From: Streptomyces sp. DI166
GTDB lineage: Bacteria; Actinomycetota; Actinomycetes; Streptomycetales; Streptomycetaceae
Length of the DNA stretch: 64,000 bases
Assembly: GCF_900091315.1 (NCBI RefSeq)
Contig: NZ_FLSP01000003.1
Coordinates: forward strand, 62,001 to 126,000
Direction: 5' to 3'
Numbering within the stretch: position 1 is the stretch's first letter; every line of letters begins with the position of its first letter. Below the pieces are notes generated by a model. That model made no database searches and was not told the DNA's origin. It saw only the letters and a list, made by a program, of their open reading frames with translations. Positions 3,646 to 35,143 of the stretch are shown here, in pieces. A program made the position numbers and the translations under genes.

Positions 3646-5097
3646 ATGGCTTACGACGATCTTCGTTCCCTGCTCAGGGCACTGGAACGCGAAGGCGACC
3701 TCAAGCGCGTCAAAGCGGAGGTCGATCCGTATCTGGAGGTCGGGGAGATCGTCGACCGGGTGCAGAAGGCGGGTGGCCCGGCACTGCTCTTCGAGAACGT
3801 GAAGGGCTCCTCGATGCCCCTCGCGATGAATGTCTTCGGCACCGACCGGCGGCTGCTGAAGGCGCTCGGCCTGAAGTCGTACGCCGAGATCAGCGACAAG
3901 ATCGGCGGACTGCTCAGGCCCGAGCTGCCGCACGGCTTCGTGGGCGTCCGGGAGGCCTTCGGCAAGCTCGGCGCGATGGCCCACGTACCGCCGAGGAAGG
4001 TCAAGGACGCGCCGGTGCAGGAGGTGGTGCTGCACGGCGACGACGTCGACCTGGAGCAGCTCCCGGCCCTGTTCACCTGGCCCAAGGACGGCGGTTCCTT
4101 CTTCAACCTGGGGCTCACCCACACCAAGGACCCGGAGTCCGGCGTCCGCAACCTCGGTCTGTACCGGCTGCAGCGCCACGACAAGCGCACCATCGGCATG
4201 CACTGGCAGATCCACAAGGACAGCCGCAACCACTACCAGGTCGCCGCGCGGCGCGGTGAGCGGCTGCCGGTCGCCATCGCCTTCGGCTGCCCGCCCGCCG
4301 TCACCTACGCCTCCACCGCGCCGCTGCCCGGCGACATCGACGAGTACCTGTTCGCCGGGTTCCTGGCGGGCAAGCGGATCGAGATGGTCGACTGCAAGAC
4401 CGTGCCGCTCCAGGTCCCGGCGCAGGCCGAGGTCGTCATCGAGGGCTGGCTGGAGCCGGGCGAGATGCTCCCGGAGGGCCCCTTCGGCGACCACACCGGC
4501 TTCTACACCCCGCAGGAGCCGTTCCCGGCGCTGAAGATCGACTGTCTGACCATGCGGAAGAGGCCGCTGCTCCAGTCGATCGTGGTGGGCAGGCCGCCCA
4601 CGGAGGACGGGCCGCTGGGCCGCGCCACCGAGCGCTTCTTCCTTCCCCTGCTGAAGATCATCGTGCCGGACATCGTGGACTACCACCTGCCCGAGGCGGG
4701 CGGCTTCCACAACTGCGCGATCGTCTCGATCGACAAGAAGTACCCGAAGCACGCGCAGAAGGTGATGCACGCGATCTGGGGGGCCCACATGATGTCCCTG
4801 ACCAAGCTGATCGTGGTCGTCGACTCCGACTGCGACGTCCACGACCTGCACGAGGTCGCCTGGCGCGCGCTCGGCAACACCGACTACGCCCGCGACCTCT
4901 CGGTCGTCGAGGGCCCCGTCGACCATCTCGACCACGCCTCCTACCAGCAGTTCTGGGGCGGCAAGGCGGGCATCGACGCCACGAAGAAGTGGCCCGAGGA
5001 GGGCTACACCCGTGACGGAGGGTGGCCGGACATGGTGGAGTCGGACCCGCGGACCGCGGCGAAAGTGGACCGCCGCTGGAAGGAGTACGGCCTGTGA
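3646..5097 (+). CDS. mqnL: UbiD-like decarboxylase of the futalosine menaquinone pathway
   Basis: A 483-aa member of the UbiD family of prenylated-FMN-dependent (de)carboxylases, full length. The N-terminus [19 protein letters not shown] and the [11 protein letters not shown] segment around residues 280-290 are family signatures; that segment holds an active-site glutamate. In the futalosine route it would decarboxylate the prenylated 1,4-dihydroxy-6-naphthoate intermediate. The partner flavin prenyltransferase (UbiX type) and the UbiA-type prenyltransferase follow directly. The stop overlaps the GTG of the next gene (GTGA), so the two are translationally coupled. The symbol follows the naming used for futalosine late genes. 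Other UbiD substrates cannot be excluded from sequence alone, but the context decides. Confidence 0.9.
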
Positions 5098-5996
5098 GCT
5101 CGGCTTCCGCCGCCCTCCCGCAGCCGGGACGCACCAAGGCCTTCCTGCGCCTGGTGATGATCGAGCACTCGATCTTCGCGCTGCCCTTCGCCTACATCGC
5201 CGCCCTCACCGCGATGTACGAGTGGGACCGCAACATCCACTGGGGCCGGCTGCTGCTGGTGACGGTCTGCATGGTCGGCCTGCGCACCTTCGCCATGGCG
5301 GTCAACCGGATCATCGACCGCGAGATCGACGCGCGGAACCCCCGGACGGCGCATCGCGAACTGGTGACCGGCGCGGTCTCGGTGAAGCACGCCTGGACCG
5401 GCGCCCTGATCGCGCTCGTGGTCTTCCTCGGCTCGGCGGCCCTGCTGAACCCGCTGTGCCTGGCGCTCGCGCCGGTCGCGGTGGTGCCGATGGTGGTCTA
5501 TCCGTACGGCAAGCGGTTCACCAACTTCCCGCAGGCCATCCTGGGCCTGGCCCAGGCGATGGGCCCGGTCGGCGGCTGGCTGGCGATCACCGGTGAGTGG
5601 TCCTGGGACGCGGTGATCCTGGGGCTGGCGGTGGGCATCTGGATCGGCGGCTTCGATCTGATCTACGCCTGCCAGGACGTGGAGACGGACCGCGAGATCG
5701 GCGTGATGTCGGTCCCGGCCCGCTTCGGCATCCCCGCGGCGATCTGGTCGGCCCGGGTCTGCCACGTGATCGTGATGGCCCTGTTCGTCTGGTACGCCGT
5801 CGTCACCGACGCGGGCTTCTTCTTCTGGCTCGGACTGATGATCGTCGCCGGTGCTTTCGTATACGAACACAACATCGTGCGCCCCCACGACCTCTCCCGC
5901 CTGAACAGGGCGTTCTTCAGCGTCAACGGCTTCATCGGCATCGCGCTCTTCGTCTGTGCCCTGCTGGATCTGCTGGTACGGGGGCTGACCGTCTGA
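5094..5996 (+). CDS. mqnP: UbiA-family prenyltransferase of the futalosine menaquinone pathway
   Basis: A 300-aa polytopic membrane enzyme. The first Asp-rich motif NRIIDREID and the second DVETDREIG (DxxxD type) bind Mg-diphosphate and mark the UbiA superfamily. It should attach the polyprenyl tail to 1,4-dihydroxy-6-naphthoate at the membrane. About eight hydrophobic helices are visible. I start it at the GTG that overlaps the preceding stop (GTGA), with AAGGAG about ten bases upstream; the open frame further upstream runs inside the UbiD gene and is not part of it. It sits between the UbiD- and UbiX-like genes, which supports one late menaquinone block. Confidence 0.92.
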
Positions 5997-15166: not shown

Positions 15167-16443
15167 GACGCCTCCGCCCCTTCCGCCGCCTTCTTCAATG
15201 CCCAGGGGTTGAGCTCATCCGGCCAGTGGTCCTTCCCTGATCCCGAAGTCTGATCACCGGGGATCTGGTGCTTGATGGCTTCGTACGTGATCTTGGCCGC
15301 GCCCCCTGGCCCCTGCGCCACCGCGTTCGCGCCCCAGTTACCGGCGAACTGGATCGTCTTTCCCGCCAACTCGGCACCACCCACCAACCTGCCGGGCTGG
15401 GTCAGTACCGACTTGAAGAGCCCCGCAGCAGGTGCCCCCATGCGGGCAAGTGCCTTACCTGCGGCGAAAGCACCTCCGCCCAGGGCCAGTCCGGCAGCAT
15501 CGACCAGCACGGTCGGTGAGGTAAGTGCCTGCGCGAAGCTTCCGGTCTCTCCTACGGCCTGAAGATAGTGAGCTGCCAGTCCGATACCCGCCAGTGCCAG
15601 GCTCAGGGCGGCCAATCCCGGAAAGGCCAGGGACAGCAGGCCGGTGATCGCGCTGAGTGTGCCTGCGATGTTTCCGATGAAGGCGAAGAGCCAGGAGTAC
15701 TCCTTCAGAAGTTCCTTGAGCCCGTCGAGAAGCATGTCGCTGACCGCTTCGAGCGCCTTGAGAGCGGCCCCGATGCCGTCTGCCAATTTGTCCCAGAAGC
15801 CCGGCTCGTTCGGCGCGATGTCCATCGCGTGCTTGAGCCGGTCGGCGACGGCCTCGCCCTCTTCGACGTAACGTTTCCTCAGGCGCTCCGCCCGGCCGCG
15901 TATCTCCTCCAGGTCGGCGTTGGCCGAGTGCAGTGACTTCTCCTTGCCGCTGCGCTTCTCCTCCAGCCGTTCCCGCTTCGCCTTCTCCTCGTGGGACTGG
16001 TCCCGCAGTTGGTCCGCGAAGCCCGGCTTCGGCGGCATCCGGTCGAGTTCCCGCTGAAGACCGGCCGCCTTGTCCTTGGCGTCCTGGGCCTCGGACTCCA
16101 GCCGGTCGGCGATCGCCTGCTGGTCGGCCATGTAGCGTGCCCAGTCCTCCAAGGCCTGGGCCGCGTCCGAGAAGGAGTCCCGCGCGTCGTTGACCTTGGG
16201 CCGGAAGTCGTCGTGGAACTGCTCGCGGAACGCTTCGGCGGCCTTGCCCTTCCACTCTCCGCGTCCGGTGCCATTGAGGACGTCAGCGATGTCCCGGAGT
16301 GCCCGTGCTGTACGGCGGACGATCGCTGCCACATGCGTGGCGTCCTTCTTGTTGCCGGGGCACGGGCAAAAGCCGATCGCGGGGAAGCGGGCGTCGGCGG
16401 CCGGGTCCGGCAGGAGCCAGGTCGGCTGACCGTAGTCAGTCAC
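15163..16443 (-). CDS. Large WXG-domain protein, putative type VII substrate (cassette A)
   Basis: A 426-aa protein. Residues 1-130 carry the start FPAIGFCPCPGN, a long helix and the motif GEWKGKAAEAFREQF, the WXG turn of ESX-type helical hairpins; a coiled-coil-rich part (about 110-225) follows, with DIAPNEPGFWDKLADGI at its end. The C-terminal half holds a hydrophobic hairpin (about 265-330) and Ala/Gly-rich stretches. The same order is seen in 33117 with clear similarity, and the N-terminal part also heads the Rhs toxin at 54937. It ends without a recognisable toxin domain. The GTG overlaps the stop of the WXG100-like gene (GTGA). Substrate or structural partner of a type VII system is likely; pore formation is possible. 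Confidence 0.8.
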   Translation of the reverse strand: MTDYGQPTWLLPDPAADARFPAIGFCPCPGNKKDATHVAAIVRRTARALRDIADVLNGTGRGEWKGKAAEAFREQFHDDFRPKVNDARDSFSDAAQALEDWARYMADQQAIADRLESEAQDAKDKAAGLQRELDRMPPKPGFADQLRDQSHEEKAKRERLEEKRSGKEKSLHSANADLEEIRGRAERLRKRYVEEGEAVADRLKHAMDIAPNEPGFWDKLADGIGAALKALEAVSDMLLDGLKELLKEYSWLFAFIGNIAGTLSAITGLLSLAFPGLAALSLALAGIGLAAHYLQAVGETGSFAQALTSPTVLVDAAGLALGGGAFAAGKALARMGAPAAGLFKSVLTQPGRLVGGAELAGKTIQFAGNWGANAVAQGPGGAAKITYEAIKHQIPGDQTSGSGKDHWPDELNPWALKKAAEGAEAS

Positions 16444-16751
16444 TTCTTCCCGCCCTTCGGGGATCGCGCCTTCTCCAGCTCGCGGGCGAACTGCTCGTCC
16501 GTCTCTTCGAAGGTCTTCTTGATCTGTCCCAGAGCCTTCGCGGCGGACTTCGAGAACTTCGACATCTGTTTGATGCCGTAGGACCACTCGTCGCCGAAGT
16601 CATCCATCCGCTGGGCGAGTTTGTAGACACCCATTGATGCGCCGTCGACATCCTCCATTTCACGGCACGGCGCCGCCATCACTTCATGGATGTCCTCGAT
16701 GTCCTTCTGTGTCTTCACCAACATCTCGTAGTCGATGTACAGATCACTCAT
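16440..16751 (-). CDS. WXG100/ESAT-6-like small protein (cassette A)
   Basis: A 103-aa, all-helical protein: MSDLYIDYEMLVKTQ, a first long helix, then a turn near DEWSYG in place of a strict WXG, and a second helix ending in the basic tail ARSPKGGKK. Size and shape fit the ESX family exported by type VII secretion as dimers. The first gene of the WXG part of the operon, it is coupled to the next through GTGA. The start has a GGGGGAACG ribosome site, matched almost base for base ahead of the 38-aa gene at 32998. The partner protein for a heterodimer is not evident. Confidence 0.75.
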   Translation of the reverse strand: MSDLYIDYEMLVKTQKDIEDIHEVMAAPCREMEDVDGASMGVYKLAQRMDDFGDEWSYGIKQMSKFSKSAAKALGQIKKTFEETDEQFARELEKARSPKGGKK

Positions 16752-27603: not shown

Positions 27604-30600
27604 TCAGCCCGGCACCACAACCGTCCGCAGCTCCCCGTCGCCCAGGTGCAGCATGCCCTTGCCGGGGACGGCCTGGCCGCCCACCATGCTGCGGTTGAGG
27701 CGGACGCCGATGAGGTCGCCGCTGGAGGACTCCTGCGGCGAGAGGAGGATGCCGCGGCGGGCCTTCTTGGCGTCGACCTGCCAGCCGGAGAAGCCGCTGC
27801 ACACGTCCTCCTCGTCACCGGCGATGACGAGGGCCAGACCGCGCTCCGCGCCACGCGAGACGATCTTCTTCATCTGGCTCTCGGCGTCGCAGTCCTCCAG
27901 GATCTCGCCGTCGTCGACGAGCACGACGACCGGGTTCTCGACCGACGGCTCGGCGTCGTCGATCAGCTCCTCGAACTCGTCCTCGTCGATGTCGTCGCTG
28001 GTGAAGACCTTCAGTACGCCTTCCACGCCGTCGAGTTGGCGGACCGGCGACTGGCGCGGCGCGGCGACGACCAGGCGCACGCCCTGCTTCAGGAAGGACT
28101 GCGCGAAGTTCATCAGCACCGTCGAACGGCCCGACTTCGCCGGACCCGCGATCACGAACGACGGCACACCCTGCGCGAGGTCGGGGCCGAAGCCGACGAT
28201 CTCGTCGCCGCCGATACCGGCCAGCGCGTACAGCCTGGAGCGCGAGACCTCCGGGTCGCGCAGCTCCCACGCCTCGTCGAAGGAGATCCGGCTGGGCAGG
28301 CTGTCGACCCGGAACGGCCGCTTGGCGCGCGGGACTTCGGCGTCGCGCGCGGTGGCCGCCTCCCCGATCGCGGCCAGTGCAGCGGCCTGACCCTGACCGG
28401 TGGTGTCCTCGGCGAGCAGCGCGAACTGCGTCTCCGTACCGGCCTCGTTCTTGAAGCCACGGCCCGGCGGGATCTCCTCCGGCACCTTGCGCGCGGGGAT
28501 GCCGAGCATGGAGAAGTCGCTGCGGTCCGACAGTCGCAGACCGTACTTGTCCTCGGTGAGCGTGGCGATCCGGCCCACCAGCAGGGTCCGGTCACCGGTC
28601 AGCACCAGGTGGATGCCGAGGCTCGCGCCCTCCCGCATCATCGTCTGCAGCTCGTCCGTCAGCGCGCCGTGGTCCACCTCGCCGAGGGTGGGCACCCAGC
28701 CCTCCCACCGGTCCAGCAGGACCACGATGTGAGGCAGCCGCTCGTCCTCGGACACCGCGGCCCGCTGCTCGCCGATGTCCGCGAACCCCTTGTCGGAGAG
28801 CAGGTTCTGGCGGCGGTCCATCTCGCCCTTGAGCCGGTTGATCAGCCGCACCACCCGCTCGGTCTGGTTACGGCCGACGACCGCGCCGACGTGCGGCAGC
28901 CGGGTCAGCGCGTTCAGCGCGCCGTTGCCGCAGTCGATGCCGTACATGTGCACATCGGCGGTGGAGTGCGTACGGGCCAGCGAACCGGCGATCGTACGCA
29001 GCACCTGCGAGCGTCCGCTGCGCGGGGCGCCGCCGATCATGAGGTGGCCGAAGCTCTCGAAGTCGATCGTCACCGGGCGGCGGGACTGGAGCGCGGGCAG
29101 GTCCTCGATGCCGTAGGCCACGGGCGCCAACCTGCCCGGCGCCGGGCTGAATTCGGGCTCGGGGATCTCGTCGAGCAGCAACTGCTCGTCCAGCGCGGGC
29201 AGCCACGGGCTGTGCTGCGGCGGGATGCCGAGCGACCGGTTGGCGTCCCGGATGGTGTCCACCAGCACCTTGAGGTCGGTGATCTCCTCGTCCTCGCGCG
29301 ACTCGGCCTTCGGCTTGGTCAGCGCGGCCCGACCCAGGTCCTCCCAGGCCAGCGGCCCGACCCAGGGCTTGAGGACGGCGGGGTCCGCGGCGCCGGGCCG
29401 GCGGCCACCCACGCGGCCGGACTGGAACGGCACCAGCGAGGCGTGCCCGAGCCGTACGTACGCCCGGCCCGGTGTGCTCTTGGAGATGTGCCCGGCCTCG
29501 GGGGAGTCGATGACGTCCGACGACTCGCCGCCGTCGGTCACGCGCAGCGCGATCCGCAGGTTGGTGTTGGCGCGGATCTCCGGGGAGACCACACCCGAGG
29601 GCCGCTGCGTGGCGAGCAGCAGGTGGATGCCGAGGGAACGGCCTCGCTGGGCGATGTTGACCAGACCCGTCACGAAGTCCGGCAGATCGCGCACCATCGA
29701 GGCGAACTCGTCGATGACGATGAGGAGTCGAGGCACCGGCTGGTGGGACGGGTCGCGGCGCACCAGGTCCTGGTAGTCCTCGATGTCCTTGGCGTCGGCG
29801 GCGGCCAGGATGTGCTCGCGGCGGTGCAGCTCGGCGCCCAGCGACTCCAGCGCGCGCTCCACGAGGTGCGCGTCGAGGTCGGTCACCATGCCGACGGTGT
29901 GCGGGAGATGGACACAGTCCTTGAACGCCGCGCCACCCTTGTAGTCGACGAGCACGAAGGTCATGTTCTCCGGCGTGTTCGCCACGGCGAGCGCAGCGAC
30001 GATCGTCTGGAGCAGCTCCGACTTACCGGAACCGGTTGTACCGGCGATCAGACCGTGCGGGCCGTCCTTGCGGATGTCGATGCCGAAGGGACCGTCGTAG
30101 GACTCGCCGATGACGGCCAGCGTCGACTGCCCGCCCATCCGCCAGCGCGCCACGATGGCATCGCTGGTCGGCGGCTCCAGTTGCAGCACGTCCAGCAGCC
30201 GGCTGGAACTGGGCAGCGCCGAGTCCTCGGTCTCCCCGCTGATGTCGCGCAGGGAGGAGACGGACCGGGCGAGCCGCAGGCACCAGGACGGCGAGACGAA
30301 GTCGGGCCGCACGTCCTTGCGCCGCTCGGCACCGGCCTCCTCCACCCGCAGCCGCAGCTTGTCGGGCTCCTGGGTGTGGGACGGCTCGGGGGAGGTGTTC
30401 TGGTGCCAGGCCTGGAAGGAGGGGAACCCACCGGGGGCCTGCTCCTGCCGCTGTGCCTGCTGCTGGGGCCGCGGCGCCTCCTCGGCCTTCGGCTCGGCCA
30501 CGACGTACGCCTGGCACTCGCCCGGCAGGAACCGCTCCTCGGCGTCCAGGCAGATCGCGTACATGGAGACGGACGGGCCCTCGCGCAGCAGCCGTACGAC

Positions 30601-32268
30601 ACCCGGCAGGGAACGCAGACGGCGCGAGCCGTCCCAGACGACCACGATGTCGGGGTCGCTGAAGGTGGAACCCTGGCCGCGGTTCTGCTCGGCGGCCTTC
30701 TTGCGGGCGTCCAGGATCTGCGTCAGCTCACCGATCCGGGCGCCCACGGTCTCCGCGTCGGTGCCGATGAGCACGTTCACGTCCTGACCGCCGGACGGCC
30801 TGGCGTGCGGCAGCCACCGCACCCAGTCCCAACTGCCCTGCGCGGACTGCTCGCTGAGAACGTAGAACTGCACATCCATCGGACTGTGCAGCGCGGCGGT
30901 CTGCGCCACGGCCCAACGCCCCATGGCCCGCGCCGAGTCACCGGGCCCGGCCATGCCGATGACCCCGAGCCCGCGCAGGTTCAGGGCGACCGGGGCGTCC
31001 TCGATCTTCCAGGTGACCTCGCGCTTGTGGTCGTCCTGCTCGGGGTCGTCCAGGACGACCTCGGAGGGCAACTGCCCGGTGCCGACCCGCAGCAGCAGAT
31101 GGTCGCGGTCGGTGCGGCGCCGCTCCCAGAGCCGGGTACGGGGCCCGGTGCCCAGCGAGAGCACCGTCGCCGGGTCCGGAATGGCCTGCCGCCGGTCGTT
31201 CCGCTCGGCGACCAGGGCGTCCTGCGCGTCCTGCTCGATCCGGGCCTTCTGCTCCTCGTACTCCTTGACCTGCTTCGCGTGCGACTTACGGCCGTGCTTC
31301 TTGTCGTTGTAGTAGTTCGCGAACAGCAGGATCGGGCTGAGGCCCGCCATGATCAGGTAGTACCAGCGCTGGAAGATCAGCACGGCGACGACGGCACCGA
31401 CGAGCGGCGTCAGCGCCATCAGCCAGGGCAGCGGCCGGGCCTCGTACTCCCGCGGCTTGGACGGCAGCCGGAACCGCGTCTGCCGCTCGGGCGGCCGGAG
31501 CCGGGGCGGCCGGTTGTAGTCGAGGCCGGTGCCGTCCTCGGACCACTTGAGGGCGGCGTTCGGGGGCGCGTAGCGGGTGAGCTCGACGAGGGTGTTGCCG
31601 AGGGCGATCTGGGCGCCGAGGGGCCAGATGTCGGGGTCGGGGGGCGGGGTGTCGCTGTCGCTGCTCTCTTCCTGGCTTTCCTTCTTCCGCCGCTTTTTCT
31701 TCTTCTCTTCTTTCTTGTCCTCTTTGGGGTTGAGGATCTCCTCGATGGGGGTGCCGTCGAGGAAGGCGGCCTCGGTGTCCCCGTGGACCTTGAAGCGGCA
31801 GGTGCCGTCGGTGGAGACGGAGAGGGTCAGGGCGCGGGCGTCGACCTCGGGGTCGTCGATACGGATGTGGCTGGCGGGGCCGCTGCCTATGTCGTAGCGG
31901 CCGACGCCGAGCCGGTGCACGTAACCGGCGACGGGCCCGCCGACGATCCGCAGCTCCACGAGCCCGGTGGGCTCGCCGGGCAGGCACCCGGAGGGGTCCT
32001 GGAGGCTGACGACGGCGCCCTCGCGCAGGGGCGAGTTGGGGATGGTGGCGGACGGGTCGACGGCGTACCCGTCGACGTACAGGAGCGGGGCGTTTCCGCT
32101 GGGTAGCGGGTGCTGCTGCCCGATGGGGATGACCTGAGCGCCACTGTGACCGACCTGTTTGGCCAGTTCCTGGGCGATGTCGCCCATCGTGGACTCGGGA
32201 TCGGCGTCGAGTACGACGTCGGCGGTGCCGCCGCCGAACGGATCGACGACGGTCAGAGTCAGGCGCAC
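27604..32268 (-). CDS. FHA-domain FtsK/SpoIIIE-type ATPase (EccC/EssC-like, type VII secretion)
   Basis: A 1554-aa motor. Residues about 1-90 look like a ubiquitin-like (YukD-type) domain, 105-200 like an FHA domain, and a Lys/Glu-rich stretch follows (EDKKEEKKKKRRKK). Two transmembrane helices lie near 305-345. Then come three FtsK-like modules. The first has a canonical Walker A GTTGSGKSE (about 740) and Walker B VIDEF; the second (GGAPRSGRS, about 1081, with LLDRW) and third (GPAKSGRS, about 1379, with LVDDG) have Arg instead of the P-loop Lys and lack the catalytic Glu. N-terminal FHA domains recall EssC of Firmicutes rather than mycobacterial EccC. GTG with GGGGAGGA upstream sets the start. 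EccB, EccD, EccE and MycP are not in the window. Confidence 0.9.
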   Translation of the reverse strand: MRLTLTVVDPFGGGTADVVLDADPESTMGDIAQELAKQVGHSGAQVIPIGQQHPLPSGNAPLLYVDGYAVDPSATIPNSPLREGAVVSLQDPSGCLPGEPTGLVELRIVGGPVAGYVHRLGVGRYDIGSGPASHIRIDDPEVDARALTLSVSTDGTCRFKVHGDTEAAFLDGTPIEEILNPKEDKKEEKKKKRRKKESQEESSDSDTPPPDPDIWPLGAQIALGNTLVELTRYAPPNAALKWSEDGTGLDYNRPPRLRPPERQTRFRLPSKPREYEARPLPWLMALTPLVGAVVAVLIFQRWYYLIMAGLSPILLFANYYNDKKHGRKSHAKQVKEYEEQKARIEQDAQDALVAERNDRRQAIPDPATVLSLGTGPRTRLWERRRTDRDHLLLRVGTGQLPSEVVLDDPEQDDHKREVTWKIEDAPVALNLRGLGVIGMAGPGDSARAMGRWAVAQTAALHSPMDVQFYVLSEQSAQGSWDWVRWLPHARPSGGQDVNVLIGTDAETVGARIGELTQILDARKKAAEQNRGQGSTFSDPDIVVVWDGSRRLRSLPGVVRLLREGPSVSMYAICLDAEERFLPGECQAYVVAEPKAEEAPRPQQQAQRQEQAPGGFPSFQAWHQNTSPEPSHTQEPDKLRLRVEEAGAERRKDVRPDFVSPSWCLRLARSVSSLRDISGETEDSALPSSSRLLDVLQLEPPTSDAIVARWRMGGQSTLAVIGESYDGPFGIDIRKDGPHGLIAGTTGSGKSELLQTIVAALAVANTPENMTFVLVDYKGGAAFKDCVHLPHTVGMVTDLDAHLVERALESLGAELHRREHILAAADAKDIEDYQDLVRRDPSHQPVPRLLIVIDEFASMVRDLPDFVTGLVNIAQRGRSLGIHLLLATQRPSGVVSPEIRANTNLRIALRVTDGGESSDVIDSPEAGHISKSTPGRAYVRLGHASLVPFQSGRVGGRRPGAADPAVLKPWVGPLAWEDLGRAALTKPKAESREDEEITDLKVLVDTIRDANRSLGIPPQHSPWLPALDEQLLLDEIPEPEFSPAPGRLAPVAYGIEDLPALQSRRPVTIDFESFGHLMIGGAPRSGRSQVLRTIAGSLARTHSTADVHMYGIDCGNGALNALTRLPHVGAVVGRNQTERVVRLINRLKGEMDRRQNLLSDKGFADIGEQRAAVSEDERLPHIVVLLDRWEGWVPTLGEVDHGALTDELQTMMREGASLGIHLVLTGDRTLLVGRIATLTEDKYGLRLSDRSDFSMLGIPARKVPEEIPPGRGFKNEAGTETQFALLAEDTTGQGQAAALAAIGEAATARDAEVPRAKRPFRVDSLPSRISFDEAWELRDPEVSRSRLYALAGIGGDEIVGFGPDLAQGVPSFVIAGPAKSGRSTVLMNFAQSFLKQGVRLVVAAPRQSPVRQLDGVEGVLKVFTSDDIDEDEFEELIDDAEPSVENPVVVLVDDGEILEDCDAESQMKKIVSRGAERGLALVIAGDEEDVCSGFSGWQVDAKKARRGILLSPQESSSGDLIGVRLNRSMVGGQAVPGKGMLHLGDGELRTVVVPG

Positions 32269-32601
32269 GTCTGTAGTCCTCCCCGCTGCCCCCGTGACCG
32301 CTTCCGCAACGCGGGTCACAGTTCCAGGCGACGATATCTGCTGGGGCGGGAAGGGACACAGGGGGTCGGGTGCGGTGCTTCCCAAAGGCAACGCAGTGCA
32401 CACGAGGTTGTGACGGCTCTACGACGTGTTGTTCACAACGCCGGGATGTGACACCTCTGGCCTCCCCCGTAAGCTGCTGCCTCAAGAGCGGACGATCACA
32501 CCGGCAGTCACACGCGAGTTGACGCCGACCGGTGACTGTCGGACCGCAAACAGGGAGCCACGGGGGTTGGCCCTGCGGCGTTTTGAAGAGGGAGCGGCTT
32601 C
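32269..32601. other. Divergent regulatory region between the EccC gene and cassette B
   Basis: These 333 bases hold no gene. At 32428-32439 lies a near-palindrome GTTGT-TC-ACAAC that could be an operator shared by both directions. TTGACG at 32519 is a possible -35 for cassette B, but no convincing -10 follows at the right distance. Confidence 0.4.
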
Positions 32602-32904
32602 ATGGCCAAGGACCTTGACATCACATATCAGGACATGCGGGACGCGGCCAAGCATGTCGTGAAGGAGAAGGAAAGGCTCCAGGACAAGCTCGACGGCCTC
32701 CGCAAGTACATCGCCAACCTGGTCGAGTCGGGCTATGTGACCAAGAGCTCGTCCAAGGCCTTCGACGAGAACTTCGACGAGTTCGTCAAGGGCTCCAAGG
32801 ACACGCTGGACGGCCTCGACGGCATGGGTGACTACCTGACCATGGCCGCCGACAAGTTCGAGCAGATCGACGAGGAGCTGGCGAAGCAGGCTCGCAGCAA
32901 GTGA
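32602..32904 (+). CDS. WXG100/ESAT-6-like small protein (cassette B)
   Basis: A 100-aa, all-helical protein (MAKDLDITYQDMRDAAKH, first helix to about 43; turn near LVESGYVT; second helix FDENFDEFVKGSKDTLDGL). SGY stands where WXG would be. The end IDEELAKQARSK resembles the ends of the WXG-like proteins at 16440 and 53729. It should be a type VII substrate or scaffold subunit. It is the first gene of cassette B, divergent from the EccC-type ATPase. No ribosome site other than AGGGAGC at a good distance is needed. Confidence 0.78.
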   Translation: MAKDLDITYQDMRDAAKHVVKEKERLQDKLDGLRKYIANLVESGYVTKSSSKAFDENFDEFVKGSKDTLDGLDGMGDYLTMAADKFEQIDEELAKQARSK

Positions 32905-32997
32905 CCTGCGTCGTCTGACGGCTTTCCGACGGCACGGCGGCCCGATGTGGGCCGCCGCGCCGCTGTGAGCCACCTGCAATCCGCACACGGGGGCACG

Positions 32998-33114
32998 ATG
33001 AGTGACTTGTCCGCTGACTACGCGACGCTGAACAAGGAGTCCTTCGAGAAGCTGGACCACGAACTCGCCGAGGCGAGCCGTAGCAAGGACAAGGGCAAGG
33101 GGGGCGGCAAGTAG
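32998..33114 (+). CDS. 38-aa internally deleted WXG-like protein (cassette B)
   Basis: An ORF of 38 codons starting MSDLSADYATLNKESF and ending LAEASRSKDKGKGGGK. Both the ribosome site and the first codons match the cassette A gene at 16751 (acgggggMacg ahead of the ATG; MSDL..DY..L), and the C-terminus corresponds to that protein's ARELEKARSPKGGKK. The middle (about 65 residues, both core helices) is missing. It stops two bases before the large WXG-domain gene, in the place the full-length WXG-like gene has in cassette A. I take it as a relic or a retained micro-protein that keeps translational linkage. Confidence 0.65.
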   Translation: MSDLSADYATLNKESFEKLDHELAEASRSKDKGKGGGK

Positions 33115-33116
33115 TC

Positions 33117-34442
33117 ATGGCCGAGGCGAAACTGGCGGACTACCCGGCACTGGGATTCGTGCCGTGCCCGGGAGACCAGACGGTGGCGGAGGACGTGGCC
33201 GCGACCGTACGCAGGACGGCGAAGGCGCTCGTCGAGATCTGCCACGTCCTGCACGGGACCGGTGTCGGCGACTGGAAGGGCAAGGCGGCGGAGGTCTTCC
33301 GGGAGAAGTTCGACGACGAGTTCCGCCCGCGGATGGACGAGGCCCGGGACTCCTTCAACGCCGCCGCGACCGCCCTGGAGGACTGGGCGTCGTACATGGA
33401 GCGCAAGCAGCGCGACGCCGTGCGGCTGGAGGCCGAGGCGGCGGCGGTCGACGAGCAGCTGGACAAGGCGCGCGAGAAGTCGGAGAAGCTCAAGAAGGCC
33501 GAGGGCGCCAGGGACGGCGACGCCAAGGACGACGACCACGAGGACAAGGTCAAGGCAGCCGGCAAGTCGGTGAGTGCCAAGGAGGAGGAGCTGGAGGAGC
33601 TTCGCCGCCAGGGCCGCGGTATGGCCAGGGCCTACCGGCAGTACGGCAAGGAGATCGCCGAGCGGCTGCAGAAGGCGATGGACATCGCCCCGAACGAACC
33701 CGGCCTGTGGGACAAGCTGGGCGACGCCATAGCGGACCTCGGCAAGGCGATAGCCGACCTGCCGGGGAAGGTGGGCGAGGTGCTCTCCGACATCGGCGAA
33801 TGGATCAAGAGCCACGCCGACTGGATCACCGTGGCGGCGTCGGTCATCGGTGTGATCGCCATTTTCTGCCCGGTGCTCGCGCCGCTGGCGATCGGGCTGA
33901 GCGCGGTGGCGTTCCTCGCGCATGCCGCGTCCTACGGCATGAGCGGACTGTTTCCGCCCACGGGGGCCAACATCGGCAACTGGCTCACCCTCGGCGGTGA
34001 CGCCCTCGGCATGATCCCCGGTGTCGGCGCCGCTAAGGCAGGCGTCATGGCGGGACTGAAGGCGGGCCGGGGCGCGGGCGGCGTGGTCGCCGGGACCAAG
34101 GTCGGCATCAAGACGGGGTCGACGGTGGCGAAGAACGCCATGAAGGCCGCGGACCCGGTGGCCGCCGTCATCGACAAGCCGATCATGGCCGCCGCCGCCA
34201 AGCTGGGCGTCTCGCGCGGCGCCGCCCTGACGACCACGGAAGGCGTGCAGGCCGCGGCCCAGCTCGCCTGGACGGCGCCCACCGCGATCAACGCCTACGA
34301 GACGAGCACCGGCCGCTACGACGCCGCGACCTGGGGAACCGGCGTGGCCAACGTCGTCACCGGCGCGGGCGGCGGCAAGTTCGGCGGACTGGTGGCCGTG
34401 GGCAGCGCCATCGGCCTGGGTGCCTGGGAGCTGACGGACTGA
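33117..34442 (+). CDS. Large WXG-domain protein, putative type VII substrate (cassette B)
   Basis: A 441-aa paralogue of the protein at 15163: YPALGFVPCPGD, VRRTAKALVEICHVLHGTG, then GDWKGKAAEVFREKF with the WXG turn, a long coiled-coil with Lys/Glu/Asp-rich insert (about 115-185), KAMDIAPNEPGLWDKLGDAI, and a C-terminal half with a hydrophobic hairpin (about 240-285) and Gly/Ala-rich helices. No toxin domain or cleavage site is evident at the C-terminus. The start is two bases after the 38-aa ORF, and its stop is fused to the next start (TGATG). The family is homologous to the N-terminal part of the Rhs toxin at 54937. Function as type VII substrate or membrane-active effector is inferred. 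Confidence 0.82.
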   Translation: MAEAKLADYPALGFVPCPGDQTVAEDVAATVRRTAKALVEICHVLHGTGVGDWKGKAAEVFREKFDDEFRPRMDEARDSFNAAATALEDWASYMERKQRDAVRLEAEAAAVDEQLDKAREKSEKLKKAEGARDGDAKDDDHEDKVKAAGKSVSAKEEELEELRRQGRGMARAYRQYGKEIAERLQKAMDIAPNEPGLWDKLGDAIADLGKAIADLPGKVGEVLSDIGEWIKSHADWITVAASVIGVIAIFCPVLAPLAIGLSAVAFLAHAASYGMSGLFPPTGANIGNWLTLGGDALGMIPGVGAAKAGVMAGLKAGRGAGGVVAGTKVGIKTGSTVAKNAMKAADPVAAVIDKPIMAAAAKLGVSRGAALTTTEGVQAAAQLAWTAPTAINAYETSTGRYDAATWGTGVANVVTGAGGGKFGGLVAVGSAIGLGAWELTD

Positions 34443-35143
34443 TGACGACGATGACCGCGGCGACCGTCGCCCCCCGTGACGTACCGGATCTGTGGTTCGA
34501 ACTGCCGCCGGGTTTCCTGGAGTTCGACCTGGACGAGGACCCCGAGGCGCGCGTGCTTCGGATGACGGATGTGGCCGACGGGCTGTTCGCCGAGGCGACG
34601 GCGGAGCAGAAGCTCAGCATGGTGGTGTCGAGCGAGTACATCCTTCAGAGCATGATCGCGCGAGGCGTCGAGCATGTGTCGAGCTGTCTGCTGCGCATGC
34701 CCGACGACCGGCTCTCCCAGGGCACCTTCTTCGTGATGATCGAGCGCCCGGAGGCCGGACCGCAGAGCCAGGACCGCAAGGGCTCGGCCACGCGTACGGC
34801 CGCCCAGTGGCGCGAGCTGTACCCGGACGCGGAGGTCGGCTTGGTCATGCTGCCGTACGGCATCTCGGCCCTGTGCATCCGCGACGAGGAGCTGCTGATC
34901 CCCGGCGTGCTGTTCGGCCTGGACGACCCGGTGCCGGCCACCGTCCGGCAGGTGCAGTTCAATGTGCCGCTGAAGACTGGGCCGGGGTCCGCCCTGTTCG
35001 TCTTCATGACGCAGGACATCGATCACTGGACCGAGTACCTCGATCTGCTCAGCGGCATCATGAAGTCGGTCTCGGCGGAGGAGCCGGGCGGGGCAGGCAC
35101 GTCCGGGGGCGAGCAGCCGCAGGCCGGTCCAGGAACGGAGTGA
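34442..35143 (+). CDS. EspG-sized cytoplasmic protein of cassette B
   Basis: A 233-aa soluble protein. Opening LWFELPPGFLEFDLDEDPEARVLRM, it shares layout with 14444 and 54149: an acidic hydrophobic strand first, a helical part (AEQKLSMVVSSEYILQSMIARGVEH), then strands and a conserved late helix (YLDLLSGIMKSVS). No catalytic motif is visible. It always sits next to the large WXG-domain gene, so a dedicated chaperone or adaptor is the most likely role. The start is coupled to the preceding stop through TGATG. The last 20 residues are Gly/Glu-rich and probably disordered. Confidence 0.7.
   Translation: MTTMTAATVAPRDVPDLWFELPPGFLEFDLDEDPEARVLRMTDVADGLFAEATAEQKLSMVVSSEYILQSMIARGVEHVSSCLLRMPDDRLSQGTFFVMIERPEAGPQSQDRKGSATRTAAQWRELYPDAEVGLVMLPYGISALCIRDEELLIPGVLFGLDDPVPATVRQVQFNVPLKTGPGSALFVFMTQDIDHWTEYLDLLSGIMKSVSAEEPGGAGTSGGEQPQAGPGTE

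What the first reader, a model, noticed from the sequence alone, without database searches (positions are those of the whole stretch)
32998..33114. A 38-aa protein that fuses the two ends of a WXG-like protein
The ribosome site and first codons match cassette A (acgggggMacg, MSDL..DY) and the basic tail matches its C-terminus, but the two helices in between are absent. The ORF holds the exact operon place of the full-length gene. Either it is a relic kept for translational relay or the ends have a function of their own (a secretion tag plus tail).
Basis: seen in the sequence. Interest (0 to 1): 0.7.

Follow-up and report, generated by a model that had tools for sequence, protein, structure and literature searches.

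The report
Deletion remnant of a secretion partner
In one Streptomyces genome a small helper gene for a secreted effector has lost its middle 65 codons but stayed in frame; relatives keep the full gene, so this is most likely an ordinary, recent deletion rather than a new kind of mini-protein.

Summary
The 38-codon ORF (32998-33114, +) is real, and its ends are homologous to the ends of a ~100-aa helical-hairpin partner encoded directly upstream of T7SS_signal effectors: a profile of 26 full-length partners, made without it, matches it in two pieces, 1-13 and 78-98. It is not a conserved mini-gene. Of 88 effector-upstream slots, 74 hold a full-length partner, 13 none, and only the window a short one. 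Against relatives exactly 65 codons (195 bp, in frame) are missing; the same locus in two other genomes has the full gene. The deletion removed the WxxG hairpin but kept the ribosome site, first 12 codons, the FxxxD export-arm motif and the stop two bases before the effector start. Best reading: a lineage-specific in-frame deletion that probably abolishes the export partner while keeping translational coupling. Extra amino-acid change on the effector's branch (37 N/45 S against 12 N/38 S in the sister; p 0.016, outgroup-sensitive) fits relaxed constraint.

The parts
32998..33114 (+). 38-codon ORF: in-frame deletion allele of the ~101-aa partner gene
32987..32997 (+). kept ribosome-site segment ACGGGGGCACG, similar in cassette A and in several full-length homologues
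32998..33033 (+). kept 5' end, codons 1-12 (MSDLSADYATLN), start of helix 1 of the full-length protein
33033..33034 (+). deletion junction; 195 bp (65 codons, RVRHN...LLKV in L007) missing relative to 11 of 11 close full-length homologues measured; 1-bp microhomology (C)
33034..33111 (+). kept 3' end: end of helix 2 with FEKLD (FxxxD) motif and basic Lys/Gly tail
33112..33119 (+). TAG-TC-ATG stop/start arrangement, probably coupling to the effector gene
33117..34442 (+). effector, 441 aa, T7SS_signal domain (PF21725), intact reading frame
34442..35143 (+). 233-aa gene that also lies after the effector in the close relatives compared; possible immunity protein (inferred from position only)
32602..32904 (+). 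WXG100 protein, 100 aa, of the T7SS locus
27604..32277 (-). FtsK/EccC-type ATPase of the T7SS locus
16443..16751 (-). cassette A: full-length 103-aa partner, distant paralogue in the same window

Best explanation
The ORF is a recent, lineage-specific, in-frame 195-bp deletion allele of a small helical-hairpin partner gene that sits in front of a T7SS_signal effector. Shown: the gene is full-length at the same locus in two other genomes; the deletion takes out 65 codons (most of both helices and the WxxG turn) and keeps the start, the FxxxD-bearing end and the stop 2 nt before the effector start. Inferred: the full-length protein works like a Lap1/EsxB/PE-type targeting partner, pairing with the effector's N-terminal helical domain and offering its FxxxD arm to the ATPase. 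A 38-aa single helix can hardly pair, so the effector has probably lost its dedicated export partner. The short ORF would then persist because translating it still carries ribosomes to the effector start, and because the deletion is young. The effector's raised amino-acid change on this branch fits relaxed constraint after the partner was lost.
For: Full-length partner in 74 of 88 slots, none in 13, short in 1. 12 close cassettes in 11 genomes all have a roughly 94-105 aa partner, and 11 of 11 compared have exactly 65 codons where the window has none. G159 and Streptomyces sp. D2-8 share the whole locus (ATPase, WXG100, partner, effector, 233-aa gene) with full-length partner. 38-aa query: only the home genome matches over 1-38, in 392 genus genomes and 394 family genomes (overlapping set); the 11 loci of the other matched genomes all hold a full-length form. 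[FY]xxx[DE] in 26 of 26 aligned partners and 72 of 74. AlphaFold2: hairpin for the full-length protein (H4-33, H42-95), single helix for the 38-mer. Coupling: 9 of 12 close relatives share the 2-nt stop-start gap, 2 of 12 overlap as GTGA, 1 of 12 is broken; an out-of-frame deletion would have stopped 33 nt short or 884 nt inside the effector. Effector branch: window 37 N/45 S, sister 12 N/38 S, Fisher p 0.016; ATPase control 16/74 against 23/98, p 0.86.
Against: The effector frame is still intact, so constraint is not gone. The N/S excess is sensitive to outgroup: leave-one-out p is 0.017-0.047, but single outgroups give p from 0.007 to 1.0 (3 of 8 below 0.05), and requiring all outgroups to agree leaves too few sites. 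With four genes tested, p 0.016 is marginal after correction. No conspecific strain was available, so 'recent' and 'fixed' are not separated. An assembly error cannot be excluded without reads. Loss of effector binding is inferred, not modelled.
Confidence: 0.82

Rival explanations
1. A functional mini-protein: the two kept ends form one helix carrying the FxxxD export arm, which still docks on the effector or on the ATPase and works without the hairpin.
For: The FxxxD motif and basic tail are kept; AlphaFold2 gives one continuous helix (mean pLDDT 73); frame and ribosome site are intact.
Against: Found in one genome only. A helix-1 position that is Val, Leu or Met in the close relatives became Thr. 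In the characterised systems the motif works as part of a folded hairpin in a complex (PMC9600955, passages read).
Confidence: 0.06
2. The deletion is tolerated because another partner acts in trans, e.g. the full-length cassette A partner at 16443-16751 or the WXG100 protein at 32602-32904, and the effector is adapting to it.
For: Cassette A partner is intact and 53% identical to the G159 partner; the raised amino-acid change on the window branch is largest in effector residues 1-195 (28 N/16 S against 9 N/14 S).
Against: The N-terminal domain changes faster in the sister too, and the regional contrast alone is not significant (p 0.07). Partners are cognate in the systems described (PMC9600955, PMC10653861; passages read).
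Confidence: 0.2
3. Assembly or sequencing artefact in a 242-contig draft.
For: Only one assembly of this species was seen; reads were not available.
Against: The junction lies inside a 184,841-base contig, has only 1 bp of microhomology so gives no repeat for an assembler to collapse, and the kept ends carry their own substitutions and a 2-codon insertion relative to L007.
Confidence: 0.04

Closest known systems
Lap1 / DUF3130 (LXG-associated partner proteins of T7SSb)
   Same: Small helical-hairpin protein that accompanies an effector; FxxxD motif near the end of helix 2 (PMC9600955, passages read).
   Different: No DUF3130/TIGR04197 match for two full-length members tested; Actinomycete; the window copy lacks the hairpin.
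WXG100 proteins (PF06013) such as EsxA/EsxB
   Same: About 100 aa, helical hairpin, tryptophan-glycine turn, C-terminal [FY]xxx[DE].
   Different: Turn is WxxG, not WxG; below the Pfam cut-off (3 of 26 members match even at E 0.1). The 38-mer has no turn.
EsxB/EsxC/EsxD partners of EsaD (Staphylococcus aureus)
   Same: Small hairpins that bind the helical N-terminal region of a toxin and raise its export, one with YxxxE (PMC10653861, passages read).
   Different: Three partners and a chaperone there; one dedicated partner seen here.
In-frame deletion remnants in operons
   Same: Internal loss with frame and downstream coupling kept.
   Different: Nothing beyond that kind (general knowledge, no call).

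Membership tests
T7SS_signal effector partner family (A1, defined here) | N- and C-terminal sequence of the family | tested here: met
   Two profile pieces, 1-13 and 78-98, E 1e-5
T7SS_signal effector partner family (A1, defined here) | Helical hairpin with WxxG turn (W56, G59 invariant in 26) | tested here: not met
   Absent from the 38-mer; the deleted segment contains it
T7SS_signal effector partner family (A1, defined here) | Position directly before a T7SS_signal effector | tested here: met
WXG100 (PF06013) | Pfam match above the curated cut-off | tested here: not met
   38-mer: no Pfam family; full-length homologues: best E 0.0029 in 3 of 26, cassette A 15.0 bits against a cut-off of 27.3
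Lap1 / DUF3130 | Match to the NCBIfam/Pfam model | tested here: not met
   No such match at E 0.1 for the 38-mer, L007 and cassette A partners in NCBIfam, nor among the 25 of 36 Pfam families shown for the 26 members
Lap1 / DUF3130 | FxxxD motif near the C-terminus | tested here: met
   FEKLD at residues 16-20 of the 38-mer; [FY]xxx[DE] in 26 of 26 and 72 of 74
Lap1 / DUF3130 | Binds its cognate effector and is needed for export | not testable with these tools
   needs pull-down and secretion assay
Structural neighbours in the PDB (WXG100, Lap) | Same fold as a solved WXG100 or Lap protein | tested here: inconclusive
   Foldseek: 0 matches at E 0.001; VIA-align rows shown are generic helical hairpins, Z up to 9.5

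The most novel reading that the evidence does not exclude
A natural minimal export tag: the kept 38 residues form a single helix that presents the FxxxD arm to the T7SS ATPase without the hairpin, and the effector has changed its N-terminal domain to use it or to use another partner.
Probability: 0.05. Interest if true: 0.6.

Novelty: new member of a known kind. Interest (0 to 1): 0.17.

Why it matters
As a 38-aa gene it matters little: it is one strain's deletion allele. It is a small natural experiment, though. A dedicated T7SS partner has lost its hairpin while effector, follower gene and coupling remain, so comparing this strain with a G159-type strain could show whether the partner is needed for export and how fast an effector decays without it. 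The side result, a partner family with no Pfam or NCBIfam name that precedes T7SS_signal effectors across Streptomyces and nearly always keeps [FY]xxx[DE] (72 of 74), is the more useful lead.

Tried and rejected
Fold comparison of the full-length partner gave only generic helical hairpins; no WXG100 or Lap chain was among the rows shown, which says nothing either way. Profile search of PDB sequences gave no relevant match (best E 0.021, a designed binder). Counting silent and amino-acid changes in the kept codons as a test of selection on the 38-mer was given up: only about 3 window-specific base changes in 25 codons, and no second short allele. The DNA motif search alone does not clearly beat chance at 3 mismatches. 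A first ATPase control count (10 S, 93 N) was wrong because of an unaligned indel and was replaced by the codon-aligned count. Effector matches and loci not counted among the 88 slots: L029, L044 and the G081 match (effector matched only in part) and G022:C172 (too little upstream sequence); duplicates L039 (same contig as L008) and L045 (same as L009) were dropped, and L047 overlaps L010. One of the 88 is the window ORF itself and one is cassette A. The rows L011, L040 and L043 were dropped from the effector branch count (L011 distant, the other two broken).

Full report
What is there. The ORF at 32998-33114 (+) encodes 38 residues, follows a G-rich ribosome site and ends two bases before the ATG of a 441-aa protein. 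That protein carries the Putative T7SS secretion signal domain PF21725 (39.0 bits, cut-off 27) and is followed by a 233-aa gene without a Pfam family. Upstream lie a WXG100 protein (PF06013, 61.5 bits) and, divergently, a 1557-aa FtsK-type ATPase.

Is the resemblance real? Yes. The ribosome-site string shared with cassette A occurs without mismatch exactly twice in the window. A profile built from 26 full-length partners, none of them the window ORF, matches it in two separated pieces, profile positions 1-13 and 78-98, E = 1e-5. Over 25 kept codons 71 of 75 bases equal those of L009.

What it derives from. I searched 295 genus genomes with the effector (57 had a match) and one collection of named genomes (10 loci). 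In 12 distinct close cassettes from 11 genomes the slot before the effector holds a protein of roughly 94-105 aa. In the 11 of these that were codon-compared, exactly 65 codons stand where the window has a junction. The two nearest contexts, G159 (effector 88% identical) and Streptomyces sp. D2-8, share ATPase, WXG100 protein, partner, effector and 233-aa gene, with full-length partner. The window therefore carries a 195-bp in-frame deletion at 33033/33034, with 1 bp of microhomology.

Is the short form seen elsewhere? I examined 88 effector-upstream slots: 74 full-length, 13 with no partner-like ORF, 1 short (the window). With the 38-mer as query, only the home genome matched over residues 1-38 in 392 genus genomes (7 matched at all) and in 394 family genomes (9 matched at all; the two sets overlap). 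The 11 loci from the other matched genomes all encode full-length proteins of this or a related hairpin family.

What was lost and kept. AlphaFold2 gives the full-length protein as a hairpin, helices 4-33 and 42-95, mean pLDDT 78.7. W56 and G59 are invariant in 26 sequences, and [FY]xxx[DE] lies near the end of helix 2 in 26 of 26 and in 72 of 74. The deletion removes residues 13-77. The 38-mer is predicted as one helix, residues 4-33, mean pLDDT 73.4.

How it probably works. In T7SSb, Lap1 partners bind the LXG effector and carry an FxxxD motif that is needed for export but not for complex formation, likened by the authors to the YxxxD/E arm of mycobacterial substrates (PMC9600955, abstract and passages). 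In Staphylococcus aureus small hairpins bind the helical N-terminus of EsaD and raise its export (PMC10653861, passages). By analogy the full-length partner here would pair with the effector and offer FxxxD. The 38-mer keeps the motif but not the pairing surface; loss of function is inferred. The effector itself has a WKG in its N-terminal domain (seen), so the two halves of such a bipartite signal may sit on two proteins.

Why the frame may persist. In 9 of 12 close cassettes the stop and the effector start are spaced by two bases as in the window, in 2 of 12 they overlap as GTGA, and in L040 the boundary is broken. Had the deletion shifted the frame, translation would end 33 nt before the effector start or 884 nt inside it. 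Coupling itself is inferred from this arrangement. An in-frame outcome has about a one-in-three chance, so the frame alone proves nothing.

Consequences for the effector. In an effector tree the window's end branch is 0.11 and its sister's (G159) 0.03, the pair supported 93/99. Polarised codon counts give 37 amino-acid and 45 silent changes on the window branch against 12 and 38 on the sister's (Fisher p 0.016). The ATPase shows no difference (16/74 against 23/98, p 0.86), nor does the 233-aa gene (27/30 against 11/13, p 1.0) or the WXG100 gene (1/5 against 2/1, p 0.23). Against this: single outgroups give p from 0.007 to 1.0, with 3 of 8 below 0.05. The excess spreads over the protein, 28/16 against 9/14 in residues 1-195 (p 0.07) and 9/29 against 3/24 in the rest (p 0.33). 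I read it as suggestive of relaxed constraint, not as proof. Decay of such cassettes is not rare: of 12 close cassettes, L040 has a broken boundary and an in-frame stop and L043 a frameshifted effector.

Verdict. This is most likely an ordinary in-frame deletion of a T7SS effector partner in one lineage. Literature searches run were (listings seen); passages were read from PMC9600955, PMC10653861, PMC3482391 and PMC11217815. No claim of absence from print is made.

Noticed in passing
27604-32277 (-): The 1557-aa FtsK-type ATPase has a weak FHA-like match near its N-terminus (PF16697, E 4e-6, below cut-off). FHA domains occur on T7SSb/d ATPases and are absent from T7SSa EccC (PMC11217815, passages), so this Streptomyces T7SS may not be the usual actinobacterial type.
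   Followed up: no
L040 (Streptomyces sp. CB02414), about 4001-4040 and codon 163 of the effector match: Independent decay of the same kind of cassette: a deletion joins the end of the partner gene to the effector start region, and the effector has an in-frame stop.
   Followed up: partly
L043 (Streptomyces sp. D2-8), effector about 4001-5306: Effector is frameshifted near position 4212 although its partner is full-length.
   Followed up: partly
A1 family; e.g. window 16443-16751 (-): Partner family of ~100 aa before T7SS_signal effectors has no Pfam or NCBIfam match above cut-off in those tested, an invariant WxxG in 26 and an almost invariant [FY]xxx[DE].
   Followed up: partly
L137 (G081:C14:19000-26500): WXG100 gene of the same locus and, about 5 kb away, only the last 69 residues of the effector (72% identical): a further cassette remnant.
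   Followed up: no
34442-35143: The 233-aa gene has a longer branch in the window lineage than in G159 (57 against 24 changes) with an equal N/S ratio, unlike its neighbours; recombination is possible.
   Followed up: no
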